56,205 nt of DNA. Source: Acidimicrobiia bacterium. Its GTDB lineage: Bacteria; Actinomycetota; Acidimicrobiia; Acidimicrobiales; Aldehydirespiratoraceae. Where the stretch lies: NCBI GenBank assembly GCA_024421095.1, contig JAHQYM010000005.1, positions 1 to 56,205 on the forward strand. Direction: 5' to 3'. This document shows positions 3,977-8,751 of this stretch, in pieces; the first letter of the stretch is position 1; every line of letters begins with the position of its first letter. The position numbers and the translations under genes are program-made. Under the pieces are notes generated by a model. That model searched no databases. It had not been told where the DNA came from and saw only the letters and a program-made list of their open reading frames with translations.

Positions 3977-4477
3977 ACGGAACCGCCAGCCTCTCTGTGG
4001 GGGGGGGGGGCCCCGGCGGCCTGTTGGGGGGGGGGGGGGGGGCAAATCCATGCCGTCGAAGCGGGGATGACTCTTTATCTTGCGCCAAACTCGAAACGCG
4101 GGACGGGTCGGGATCTGAGGGAACGCGGCAGTGTTCGACCAGCTCGTGAACTCAGAGACTGGGATCAACTCGGGTTTGCCGTCCACCAACTCGTGAAACT
4201 GAGACAGTGAACTCGCAGGCCCCGGATAGATGGCAACCTGGGGCTCGTCGGGGTCGCCGTCAAAGCCACCCCCTCGGTTCAGCTCTGCGGTTGAGTTTTC
4301 GTACCGCGACGAGCGCGACCGTGTAGCGTCCGTCGACACCGTCGAACGCCCACGATCTGGTGTTGAGGCAGGTAACGACCGAGAGGATCGGGTGACCGCC
4401 AACAGCGCCACCGTGTAGGAGTTGTGGACCCCCTCGAACACCCATCCCTTGTGGTTGATGACGGTCGCCACCGACAT
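3863..4477 (-). pseudogene. Middle fragment of the type IIG restriction-methylation gene
   Basis: This frame begins VATVINHKGWVFEGVHNSYT and continues through ALLAV, the usual segment after the methylase domain. It later reads PGPASSLSQFHELVDG and EFTSWSNTAAFPQIP, then RKIKSHPRFDGM before the poly-C tract at 4042-3999 (coding strand) and the first of the 65-bp repeats. Between these parts lies a second, out-of-frame version of the first segment (VVTCLNTRSWAFDGVDGRYT) displaced by 92 bp, so the fragment is a patchwork. One extra G in the tract at 4487-4519 would join this frame to the upstream methylase ORF, and one fewer G near 4275 would join the second version to the downstream part. It has no convincing start signal of its own. 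Confidence 0.6.
3999..4042. repeat. Poly-G tract pair (G12 and G17)
   Basis: Twelve G at 3999-4010, a short GC-rich spacer (CCCCGGCGGCCTGTT), then seventeen G at 4026-4042. This pair is poly-G on the plus strand, opposite to the other two tracts. The overlapping minus-strand frame reads through it as proline codons without a break. Confidence 0.95.
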
Positions 4478-7476
4478 TCGCGGCGACCCCCCCCCCCCCC
4501 CGCCGCCCCCCCCCCCCCCGCGGCGTTCTTTGCACCGGACGACGGGGATTCCACGATCTCTTTGCGCCAGTTGGCCATACCGGCGTCAGACACCGCTGAA
4601 CGCGGCAGCACTATCCCGACTCTGCCGCCATCGCGGCACAGTGCGTAGTTCGCCCAGGAGAATGCCTTGTAGAGGTCGGTCTGACCCGATCCAAGGTTCG
4701 GAAACGTAGCTCTCAGGATCTTCTTCAACGCTTCAGCCCGTTCCCGCTCACCTTCGAACTCAACCGCGAGATCCGGTCGGTCGGACTCCAGCTCATCAAT
4801 TCGCGCCCGCCGCTTCGCCACCGGCAGCGCACGCACACCGGGCAGGTACATTCCCCACCAGACCTCGCGGTCTACCACTACCTTCTCCCACGGCGGATTG
4901 CCGAGCAGACAGTCGAAACCGCTTCGCTCGGAACGGGCGAAAACCTCGGGCCACACCGTCGGATAGTGGACAGGGGCTAGGCGCCGCACGGACGCTCGAA
5001 CCGCCGGCTCGTCCGCCGACCGGGCGACGCTCTCGGGGCTGAAATCGAAGTCGCGATGAATCTCTATGGCACCGGCGCGAACCGCAGTCGCAACATCGAA
5101 CACCGCCCTCACCGGTGCGACTGCTCCACGAGACTCGGTTTGGGCAGCCCGTGCCGCCTCAACCTCAGACTTGTCGGCATCGTTGAGCCGGCCAAGGCGC
5201 GCCAAAGGCTCCAGACACTCTTCCAACAGGGTCTCCAACTGATGCACGAACAGCGACGGCTCGGCCTTGCTTCCCTTCGGCCTCACCGCCGCGGCTGCAT
5301 CAGCCACCGATGCCACGCCGGTCAGGCTGTCTCCGTGAACGAGGTTGTGGTCGAGGAAAGACAGCGGCAGGCCCGGAACGAACGTATGCACCCAGATCGC
5401 CAGGCGGGCCAGTTCGACAGCGACACTGTTCTTGTCGACCCCATAGATGCAATGGCGGGCCACTTGGCGACGCAGCAGGGAACTGGACTCGATCTCGGCA
5501 CCATCGGCCAGATCACCCAGCGCGTCGAGCGCGGTGCTCCGCAGACGGATCAGTTCCGCGGTCACCGCGGTCACCGGATGCAACGTCAGCCAACCGGACA
5601 GGCGGGCCTCGATGCGGTCCACCGCAGCTACCAGGAAATGGGCCGAACCCATGGCGATGTCGGCGCAGCGGAAGTCGAAGAACGCCTCGGCGAGCGCAGC
5701 GTCGTCACCGGACTCCCGCAAGGTCTCAAGGCGCGCGATATGGTCGTCGAGAGCCGGTTCCAATGCGTTGTCGAGCAGGTATTCCACAGCGAACGGCTTG
5801 GTGAAGTAGGAGCCCGTGGCCTTGCGCACACCTGAGCGGTTGTGGAAATACACGTCACCGGCTTCTACCTCCACCTCGTCGTCATCGCCGGCGGGCACGA
5901 AATTCTCCTTGCCCTTCACGGACTTGACCGCGAGGTCGTCTTGGGCCACCGACAGTTTCGACTCCAGCAGGCCCTCATAGATGGTGCCGAAGTCCCTAAC
6001 CGACAGTTCACGAAAGTCCACCGGGCCGGACCCCTCCGGCCCCTCGTCCACCAACACCGCAGACAGGGCGGGGCCAAACTCGGCATTGCTGAGCTTGATA
6101 TCGGCAATCGCTGCGCCCGACAGGCTTACCTGCGGGTCACCAGAGAACAGGCCACCGTTGTAGGTGGGCACACCCCAGTCGCGGTTGCCCTGATCAACCG
6201 CATCCCAAAGCTGTTTCACGTCGTCCCACAGATCGGTCGCACCCGCATCGTAGTCGATCAGGCCTTTGTGTCGATCCTCTGCAAGCAGACGGGCCTTCCG
6301 CGACAACGAGTGGTCCGCGTAACGGCCGTTCGAGCGATAGGGCAACAGGTCCTTGTCCTCGGCATAGGCCACGAACAACAACCGAAAGAGGATCACCATC
6401 ACCTGCTCATAGGCACCGGCCAAGTCCGCCTCGGTCAAGCCGCTGCTAGCCGACGAAGACGAGAGTCGATCGGCCACTGCTCTGGCCAGGCTTGGCACGG
6501 TCTCGTGGTACACCCGCTCACGCAACCGCACAGCCAACGCGGCCACATAATCGGCTGACTTCTCGAGTATCTGCTCGAGTGAGCCGTTGTCGCTCAGGGC
6601 TTCGGCCGAGAACAACAAGTGGAGATAACCGGCGAACTCGGCGGGAACCAACGACAGGTTCAATTCAACGAAGGTCTCAGCGCGGCCCTTCCGGCCCACG
6701 CCCGTGTCGGGACGAGCGGCATAAAGGCGGATCTCTGACGAGCGGGTGAGGATCACCCAATCGACTCGCTCCTGGTCGGCCAGAGCAAGCGCCCGAGACA
6801 CGGGCGAGGTGCTGTCGAACCGGCCTGACGGTGCCTCGAAAGGCTCATCGTCATCACAAAACACCGCCACGGCGTGCTTGCGGTCATTGATCGTGAGCAT
6901 CTGCGCGTTGGTGGACAACGTCTCGACTCGGAACCCCAGCCCCTCCACCAAACGGCGCCCTCTTCGGCCCAGCAACCCTGCCGCCCTGCGGTTGGCCGAA
7001 AGCCAGTCGGGTCGGCAAGGAACACCGACTCTGAGCTCCTGGGTCGCCAGCAGCCCAACATTCCGCAGGCCCGGAAACGGGGAATCCAACTCTGAGACAG
7101 CCGCCAGCAGGAAGCGGGTGGCGGCATGGTGGCTGGGTTCGCTCAACGCAACTTCGGCCAATCTCTCGACCTGCGAAACTTCAAGGTTGTGGTACACGGT
7201 CGGAGGGTCGCCAACCGGGCCACACAGCGACACCCGCTCACCCTCAGCGGTGGGGTACAACGCAACCAGCAGCACGGGGCTGGCGCGGCCGGCCCGACGC
7301 TTCGACCATCCATCGCGCAGATCCGCCGCGGTGGGTTTGCGCCGTGCGTGAACCAGCGTCACTTCCAACCCGCTCGGCGCGTCCTGCACAAATACCCCAT
7401 GCGGAACGAGCGCCGACGGAAAACGTTCAGGCACCACCCAGGTTATTGGCTCACGACCCATCAGGAAGTCATCCAC
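4279..7476 (-). CDS. Type IIG-like (Eco57I family) endonuclease-methyltransferase, N-terminal and methylase part
   Basis: The frame runs 1,065 residues from GTG at 7476. Residues up to about 300 resemble the N-terminal nuclease-like region of these enzymes (AVAVFCDDDEPF; VDWVILTRSSEIRLYAA). A helical region follows, then TGSYFTKPFAVEYLLDNAL, the AdoMet-binding motif variant DIAMGSAHFL near residue 600, and the N6-adenine methylase motif NPPW at about residue 860. True family sequence ends at NWRKEIVES near residue 978. After that the frame passes the tract at 4519-4487 as Ala/Gly codons, and everything downstream (4279-4486) is out-of-frame noise. Such proteins normally run on through a recognition domain in one chain of 1,100-1,600 residues, so this one is truncated as read. 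It is the first gene of a minus-strand defence-type locus with the RAMA and helicase genes. Confidence 0.75.
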   Translation of the reverse strand: MDDFLMGREPITWVVPERFPSALVPHGVFVQDAPSGLEVTLVHARRKPTAADLRDGWSKRRAGRASPVLLVALYPTAEGERVSLCGPVGDPPTVYHNLEVSQVERLAEVALSEPSHHAATRFLLAAVSELDSPFPGLRNVGLLATQELRVGVPCRPDWLSANRRAAGLLGRRGRRLVEGLGFRVETLSTNAQMLTINDRKHAVAVFCDDDEPFEAPSGRFDSTSPVSRALALADQERVDWVILTRSSEIRLYAARPDTGVGRKGRAETFVELNLSLVPAEFAGYLHLLFSAEALSDNGSLEQILEKSADYVAALAVRLRERVYHETVPSLARAVADRLSSSSASSGLTEADLAGAYEQVMVILFRLLFVAYAEDKDLLPYRSNGRYADHSLSRKARLLAEDRHKGLIDYDAGATDLWDDVKQLWDAVDQGNRDWGVPTYNGGLFSGDPQVSLSGAAIADIKLSNAEFGPALSAVLVDEGPEGSGPVDFRELSVRDFGTIYEGLLESKLSVAQDDLAVKSVKGKENFVPAGDDDEVEVEAGDVYFHNRSGVRKATGSYFTKPFAVEYLLDNALEPALDDHIARLETLRESGDDAALAEAFFDFRCADIAMGSAHFLVAAVDRIEARLSGWLTLHPVTAVTAELIRLRSTALDALGDLADGAEIESSSLLRRQVARHCIYGVDKNSVAVELARLAIWVHTFVPGLPLSFLDHNLVHGDSLTGVASVADAAAAVRPKGSKAEPSLFVHQLETLLEECLEPLARLGRLNDADKSEVEAARAAQTESRGAVAPVRAVFDVATAVRAGAIEIHRDFDFSPESVARSADEPAVRASVRRLAPVHYPTVWPEVFARSERSGFDCLLGNPPWEKVVVDREVWWGMYLPGVRALPVAKRRARIDELESDRPDLAVEFEGERERAEALKKILRATFPNLGSGQTDLYKAFSWANYALCRDGGRVGIVLPRSAVSDAGMANWRKEIVESPSSGAKNAAGGGGAAGGGGGRRECRWRPSSTTRDGCSRGSTTPTRWRCWRSPDPLGRYLPQHQIVGVRRCRRTLHGRARRGTKTQPQS
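4487..4519. repeat. Poly-C tract pair (C15 and C14)
   Basis: Fifteen C at 4487-4501, GCCG, then fourteen C at 4506-4519. On the coding strand it is poly-G at the junction between the methylase domain and the next conserved segment. One added G would bring the downstream frame (MSVATVINHKGW) into register with the methylase ORF. A short direct repeat (GCCGCG) flanks the tract. Confidence 0.95.
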
Positions 7477-7640
7477 GAACTCAACATACTAATCGGGAAT
7501 TAAAGGAGCCTGCGCGTAAACGTGGAATTGGATTGCTGCAAGTGAGATACCGGTTAGCCAACTCATTCGGATTCCGCATCATTCAGCAATTCCGAGTGAG
7601 CAAACCCACAAATCCCCGTTGCTACAAGGCAAACTGGGGT

Positions 7641-8192
7641 ATGGCACGGATTGAGATCATTCCAGAAGACGCATGGGTCGGTACGCTTGCTGACCTTCAC
7701 CCGCGAGTCGCAGACCCCGTTACCGGGCAGGTCGACAATATCATGGCAGTTCATTCGCTGAACCCCCAAGGTATGGCAGCACATTTAGCCGTCTACGAGT
7801 CTGCGATGCGCGGCACCGCCACACTGCGCAAAGTGGAGCGTGAACTGATTGCGTTTGTGGTGAGCCTTACCAACGAATGCCATTATTGAGTGGTGCATCA
7901 TCGGCGTGGTCTGCGCCGCCTCATCAAGAATGACGAACTAGTGGCCGCCGTCGAAAACGACTGGCAAACCGCTCCGATATCCCCCAAACGCACCGCAATG
8001 CTGAATTTCGCAGTCAAACTCACGAATACTCCAGCAAAAATCACCGATGCCGACATATTCATGCTTAGGGAATCAGGGTTCAGCGACAGAGACATTCTCG
8101 ACATAGTCGAAGTGGTCAGCTACTACGCATATGCCAACCGCATCGCCGACGGATTAGGGATCAAGCTAGAAAACCCGAATGTCACACCCTAA
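7641..8192 (+). CDS. AhpD-like (carboxymuconolactone decarboxylase family) selenoprotein with in-frame UGA
   Basis: Read through TGA at 7887-7889, the gene encodes 183 residues, the usual length of peroxidase-related AhpD-like proteins. Codons 78-87 read NECHY-U-VVHH followed by RRGL, where relatives have CxxC-x3-H, so UGA (residue 83) stands for the second redox cysteine. The protein continues without a break through LNFAVKLTNTPAKITDADI and IVEVVSYYAYANRIADGLG to TAA. It should be a cytoplasmic thiol/selenol peroxidase or reductase. A hairpin after the UGA resembles a SECIS element (separate entry). The start ATG at 7641 has only a weak upstream GGGG. Without recoding, an 82-residue stub would be made. 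A point mutation is the alternative, but two other genes here show the same change. Confidence 0.8.
7887..7923 (+). promoter_or_regulatory. Candidate bacterial SECIS element in the AhpD-like gene
   Basis: Counting the U of UGA as 1, the hairpin CGGCG-UGGUCUG-CGCCG spans 16-32, with apical GGUCU at 22-26. In E. coli fdhF the loop also carries GGUCU at exactly 22-26. The base can pair further (UGAG 7887-7890 with CUCA 7920-7923), placing UGA in the foot of the stem as in known elements. Confidence 0.75.
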
Positions 8193-8250: not shown

Positions 8251-8751
8251 ATGGCCAAACAGCCAGATTTCGCAACAGGCAAGTTAGTCGCCGCAAACAA
8301 ACCCGAGGCGAAAGTTCGACAAGACTACGAACAGCAACTCGTCTTGGGTTACGGTTATCCGAAAGATCACATTGATATTGAAGTGCAGATACCTCGGGGA
8401 AGCACGTCGTTTTCTGAGCGCGCCGACCTTGTTGTCTACAAATCCGCGCTCGGGCGAGACCCGACCAGCGATATTGATGGCATTGTTGAGTTCAAACGTC
8501 CAGACCGTAGCGAAGGAATCGAACAACTCAAGTCTTACATGACCGCAACATCAGCACGATGGGGAGTTTGGACGAACGGCACCGATATCAACTACGTCTG
8601 CCGAGACCTCAAAGACCCCACGCGTTTACGGGAAAATTATTTGCACAATGTCCCCGCGTTCGGGCAACACGTCGCCGATGTCGGCAAACTCAAGAAAAGC
8701 GATCTTGCGCCGTTCGCGCGGGCGGAACTAAAAGTCATCTTTGGGTCGTGA
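8251..8751 (+). CDS. Orphan type I restriction HsdR_N-like nuclease domain
   Basis: A 166-residue protein with a good ribosome site (AGGGAGC before ATG). It contains the PD-(D/E)xK layout: EVQIPRG, SERADLVVYK, then GIVEFKRPD with the E-x-K pair, and later WGVWTNGTDINYV. This matches the N-terminal domain of HsdR-like or methylase-linked restriction proteins, which normally continue into a helicase or N6-methylase. Here it stops at LKVIFGS with TGA, just before a tRNA gene. It is therefore either a stand-alone nuclease or the remnant of a larger gene at the edge of the accessory region. No partner methylase sits beside it; the type IIG locus is on the other strand. Confidence 0.65.
   Translation: MAKQPDFATGKLVAANKPEAKVRQDYEQQLVLGYGYPKDHIDIEVQIPRGSTSFSERADLVVYKSALGRDPTSDIDGIVEFKRPDRSEGIEQLKSYMTATSARWGVWTNGTDINYVCRDLKDPTRLRENYLHNVPAFGQHVADVGKLKKSDLAPFARAELKVIFGS

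What the first reader, a model, noticed from the sequence alone, without database searches (positions are those of the whole stretch)
7641..8192. AhpD-like protein with UGA in place of the second redox cysteine and an fdhF-like SECIS
Family sequence continues on both sides of TGA 7887-7889 in one frame, the codon sits exactly at the second Cys of CxxC, and the hairpin behind it shows GGUCU at bases 22-26 counted from UGA, the same register as E. coli fdhF. A random nonsense mutation would not be expected to bring a correctly placed SECIS.
Basis: partly seen in the sequence, partly recalled or inferred. Interest (0 to 1): 0.9.

Follow-up and report, generated by a model that had tools for sequence, protein, structure and literature searches.

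The report
Selenocysteine-containing AhpD-like peroxidase gene
This gene looks interrupted by a stop codon, but the codon almost certainly encodes selenocysteine at the active site of a small antioxidant-type enzyme; it is a well-supported new member of a selenoprotein family first reported in 2005.

Summary
Window 7641-8192 is one reading frame of the AhpD-like "peroxidase-related" family (TIGR01926, 145 bits, cut-off 81.8). A TGA at 7887-7889 sits exactly at the second Cys of CxxC (CHY-U), and GGUCU lies at bases 22-26 counted from the UGA. The same genome (98% complete) carries tRNA-Sec(UCA), adjacent selA and selB, and a selD that itself has an in-frame TGA. Of 80 relatives (mainly Acidimicrobiia), 79 have TGA at this codon and one has TTA; none has Cys. 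The codons most strongly fixed against synonymous change in the gene are those of the hairpin loop (GGT 79/80, CTG 80/80), and the stem shows compensatory changes. So the TGA is not a sequencing error or nonsense mutation; selenocysteine insertion is by far the best explanation. It is not new in kind: "AhpD-like protein, CxxU" was described from the Sargasso Sea in 2005, and a 2026 review lists it under TIGR01926. One correction: the free RNA of this window prefers a different fold; the SECIS hairpin dominates only once the first six bases from UGA are removed, as a ribosome stalled at UGA would do. Selenium incorporation and substrate are untested.

The parts
7641..8192 (+). AhpD-like selenoprotein gene (TIGR01926 / PF02627), 183 residues with Sec83; ATG start, TAA stop
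   Evidence: the relatives' matches also begin at residue 1
7878..7880 (+). TGC, Cys80, first Cys of CxxU
7887..7889 (+). in-frame TGA read as selenocysteine (residue 83), at the second Cys of CxxC
7902..7918 (+). bacterial SECIS apical hairpin: CGGCGU-GGUCU-GCGCCG, 6 pairs, 5-base loop
7908..7912 (+). SECIS loop GGUCU, bases 22-26 counted from UGA; codons GGT and CTG fixed in relatives

Best explanation
7641-8192 encodes a 183-residue AhpD-like thiol/selenol oxidoreductase in which UGA 7887-7889 is decoded as selenocysteine. SelB with Sec-tRNA(UCA) binds the hairpin at 7902-7918, 12 bases downstream of the UGA, while the ribosome stalled at UGA holds the first bases and so clears a competing fold. 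Sec83 replaces the second (by homology the peroxide-attacking) Cys of CxxC. Cys80 would resolve the selenenic acid, with Glu68 and His87 as the expected proton relay. Shown here: the frame, the TGA, the fixed position, the hairpin's conservation and the presence of the machinery. Inferred: Sec insertion in this organism, the peroxidase or disulfide reductase activity, and the residue roles.
For: Family match across the TGA. TGA in 79/80 relatives and Cys in none. In 51 genomes of the same family, all 34 close matches (59% identity or more) carry exactly one TGA. In 198 genomes of the class, all 50 matches at E <= 1e-30 carry exactly one TGA. The genome has tRNA-Sec, selA beside selB with EF-Tu-like, beta-barrel and SelB winged-helix domains, and selD with its own UGCK-type TGA. 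47 of the 50 carriers in the class have selA against 134 of 198 overall (hypergeometric p about 7e-7; 28 of 28 among the high-quality genomes). The loop codons GGT (79/80; 23% of all Gly codons) and CTG (80/80) are the most fixed of 134 codon columns tested. The stem is 92% paired, with double changes at three pairs.
Against: No protein-level evidence of selenium. The isolated RNA's best fold is a different hairpin, and the fold z-score is not significant. No Rfam SECIS model matched at E <= 10. The bulged U17 known from fdhF is not seen. The carrier/selA test treats related species as independent.
Confidence: 0.96

Rival explanations
1. Nonsense mutation or pseudogene: the TGA is a true stop and the gene is broken.
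For: Mechanical ORF listing splits it into two ORFs (7344-7889 and 7890-8192). 4 of 5 other species of the genus examined lack the gene.
Against: The same TGA is present in 79/80 relatives down to about 58% identity, with the frame continuing on both sides; hairpin codons are frozen; complete Sec machinery.
Confidence: 0.02
2. Sequencing or assembly error for TGT/TGC.
For: The window is a contig of a draft assembly of 231 contigs; one relative (L073) has TTA at the codon, which could be such an error.
Against: TGA at the same codon in dozens of separate assemblies.
Confidence: 0.005
3. UGA is recoded otherwise, by a global UGA=Trp code or by plain readthrough inserting another residue.
For: The protein continues in frame behind TGA.
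Against: In this gene TGA falls only at the catalytic Cys position; selA, selB, selD and tRNA-Sec(UCA) are present; selD has a TGA at its own known Sec site; the Sec machinery would be pointless under UGA=Trp.
Confidence: 0.01

Closest known systems
AhpD-like selenoprotein family (AhpD-like 1/2, CxxU) of the Sargasso Sea and GOS selenoproteomes (PMC1088965, PMC2398784; TIGR01926 in the review PMC13188914)
   Same: Same protein family by TIGR01926 score, same CxxU motif with Sec at the second position, SECIS directly downstream.
   Different: A named taxonomic clade (mainly Acidimicrobiia) with a nearly invariant GGUCU hairpin at 22-26; sequences of the 2005 and 2008 sets were not aligned here.
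Cys 'peroxidase-related' proteins of solved structure (3c1l Mlr4105, 2pfx)
   Same: Homologous by sequence (phmmer 2.1e-30 and 6.9e-29), CxxC at the same place.
   Different: Cys instead of Sec.
E. coli fdhF SECIS
   Same: GGUCU loop at bases 22-26 from UGA (fdhF sequence from memory).
   Different: No bulged U17; stem sequence different.
NF041238 AhpD_rel_CFYUT (seleno)protein
   Same: Distant relative with a CxxU motif (46.9 bits).
   Different: Far below that model's cut-off (175), so not a member.

Membership tests
AhpD-like selenoprotein (TIGR01926, CxxU) | TIGR01926 score over curated cut-off | tested here: met
   145.4 vs 81.8 bits
AhpD-like selenoprotein (TIGR01926, CxxU) | in-frame TGA at the second Cys of CxxC, conserved in relatives | tested here: met
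   79/80 TGA; 50/50 in the class
AhpD-like selenoprotein (TIGR01926, CxxU) | SECIS hairpin just downstream of UGA | tested here: met
   Frozen loop codons, compensatory pairs; dominates in folding only without bases 1-6
AhpD-like selenoprotein (TIGR01926, CxxU) | host has selA, selB, selD and tRNA-Sec | tested here: met
AhpD-like selenoprotein (TIGR01926, CxxU) | selenium present in the protein | not testable with these tools
   needs 75Se labelling or mass spectrometry
classical AhpD (TIGR00777) | score over the AhpD subfamily cut-off | tested here: not met
   19.4 vs 191.95 bits
classical AhpD (TIGR00777) | Glu, Cys, Cys/Sec and His of the catalytic relay | tested here: inconclusive
   Glu68, Cys80, Sec83 and His87 are at the spacing recalled for AhpD (E118, C130, C133, H137), and Glu68 is kept in all Sec copies shown; the roles are from memory and were not tested
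E. coli-type SECIS | bulged U17 together with the GGUCU loop | tested here: not met
   Loop met; base 17 is a paired G in most sequences

The most novel reading that the evidence does not exclude
The Acidimicrobiia proteins form an AhpD-like subfamily that has Sec throughout, with no Cys orthologue found, and serve a dedicated lineage-specific redox reaction for which the Cys form is not good enough.
Probability: 0.2. Interest if true: 0.4.

Novelty: new member of a known kind. Interest (0 to 1): 0.2.

Why it matters
Annotation that takes TGA as a stop splits or truncates such genes, so the enzyme is missed. In the window's genome it is the only match to the CMD/AhpD Pfam family. Its orthologues are consistently Sec, so the clade is a clean case for asking why selenium is kept in AhpD-type enzymes. 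It does not change what is known about selenocysteine coding.

Tried and rejected
Rfam gave no SECIS match. Folding energy alone gave no support, and I did not use it as evidence. The tree of Sec and Cys copies has very long branches among the Cys paralogues (several lack the first Cys: TVHC, TGYC), so I draw no conclusion on the number of Cys-to-Sec changes. A search for conserved neighbours of the gene gave a helicase-like gene (DinG-like by my reading of the sequence) on the opposite strand in 44 relatives, but the window is not in that cluster, so no functional partner is claimed.

Full report
Observation. The frame 7641-8192 is open apart from TGA 7887-7889 and gives ...LTNECHY-UGA-VVHHRRGLRRL.... 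Read through, it matches PF02627 and, well over the cut-off, TIGR01926 "peroxidase-related enzyme"; the alignment to solved Cys homologues puts Cys at the TGA. GGTCT lies at bases 22-26 from the UGA, as in fdhF (fdhF from memory).

Machinery. The window's genome (2.72 Mb, 231 contigs, 98.2% complete, 0.98% contaminated) has tRNA-Sec with anticodon TCA (67 bits), selA and selB side by side on contig C49, SelB with EF-Tu-like domains, the SelB beta-barrel and a SelB winged helix, and selD with one in-frame TGA in ...SHGAG-U-GCKL... followed by a stable hairpin. So at least one other gene of this genome also looks like a selenoprotein gene.

Relatives. A scan of genome contigs brought 80 relatives with records naming mainly Acidimicrobiia. 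At the codon in question 79 have TGA and one (L073) TTA; none has TGT/TGC. In the window's own family all 34 matches with 59% identity or more have exactly one TGA, while nearly all more distant matches have none. In the class all 50 matches with E <= 1e-30 have one TGA. Because TGA was sent to these searches as Cys, a Cys orthologue would have been found at least as easily. Of these 50, 47 have selA, against 134 of 198 overall; the three without it are 78%, 66% and 63% complete. Species are related, so the p-value of about 7e-7 is only indicative.

SECIS. The hairpin 7902-7918 is CGGCGU-GGUCU-GCGCCG. In 80 distinct sequences GGT is used for its Gly in 79 although GGT makes up 23% of Gly codons, and CTG for its Leu in all 80; of 134 codon columns these two are the most fixed against synonymous change, and the three Arg codons next to them also rank in the top seven. 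On 36 distinct sequences the six pairs are standard in 92% of cells, with double changes at three pairs (including C-G, U-A and A-U in place of G-C at 18-30); all measures exceed nearly every shuffle, and cells paired and covariation exceed the slid versions. The outermost pair (16-32) fails in 10 of 36.

A point against reading the fold too simply: the isolated RNA from UGA on prefers another structure (-15.2 kcal/mol) in which the SECIS stem has probability near 0. Taking away the first six bases gives the SECIS stem a probability of about 0.9 at -9.1 kcal/mol. A ribosome stalled with UGA in its A site would cover those bases; this is an inference from general knowledge of ribosome footprints.

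Function. Sec83 takes the place of the second Cys; Cys80, Glu68 and His87 stand at the spacing recalled for the catalytic relay of AhpD. By analogy this is a selenol-based reductase of peroxides or disulfides with Cys80 resolving. Substrate and partner are not known, and neighbours give no clue: beside the gene in the window lie an Eco57I-type methylase gene and an ORF matching the HsdR N-terminus.

Known or new. "AhpD-like protein" with CXXU was reported in 2005 (27 sequences; PMC1088965) and as AhpD-like 1 and 2 in 2008 (299 and 70 sequences; PMC2398784). A 2026 review lists it as TIGR01926, CxxU (PMC13188914). In the library searched, the only paper holding both 'selenoprotein' and 'Acidimicrobiia' is unrelated by its title and abstract, so the clade's distribution may be undescribed, but the kind is known. 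Verdict: genuine, well supported, new member of a known selenoprotein family.

Noticed in passing
L073 3247-3249: One relative has TTA (Leu) where all others have TGA, with GGUCU and a matched stem kept; either a read error or a very recent loss of Sec.
   Followed up: partly
L018 (G000:C230:14912-15835, - strand): selD of the same genome has an in-frame TGA (UGCK) followed by a stable hairpin, so it is itself a likely selenoprotein.
   Followed up: partly
window 8251-8751 (+) and 4279-7476 (-): The gene lies between an Eco57I-type methylase gene and an ORF matching the HsdR N-terminus, with a RAMA-domain gene at 835-2232: restriction-type surroundings.
   Followed up: no
L115, L118, L120, L121, L131-L134: More distant Sec AhpD-like genes (about 35-42% identity) lack GGUCU at 22-26 and seem to carry a different hairpin (for example GACCUC...GAGGUC), so the SECIS seems to have been rebuilt during evolution.
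   Followed up: no
L123-L127: AhpD-like paralogues in the same bacterial family keep the second Cys but have Thr in place of the first.
   Followed up: no
genomes G046-G049 (same genus as the window; no locus fetched): Four of five other species of the genus lack the gene although they have selA, so it is patchily present.
   Followed up: partly
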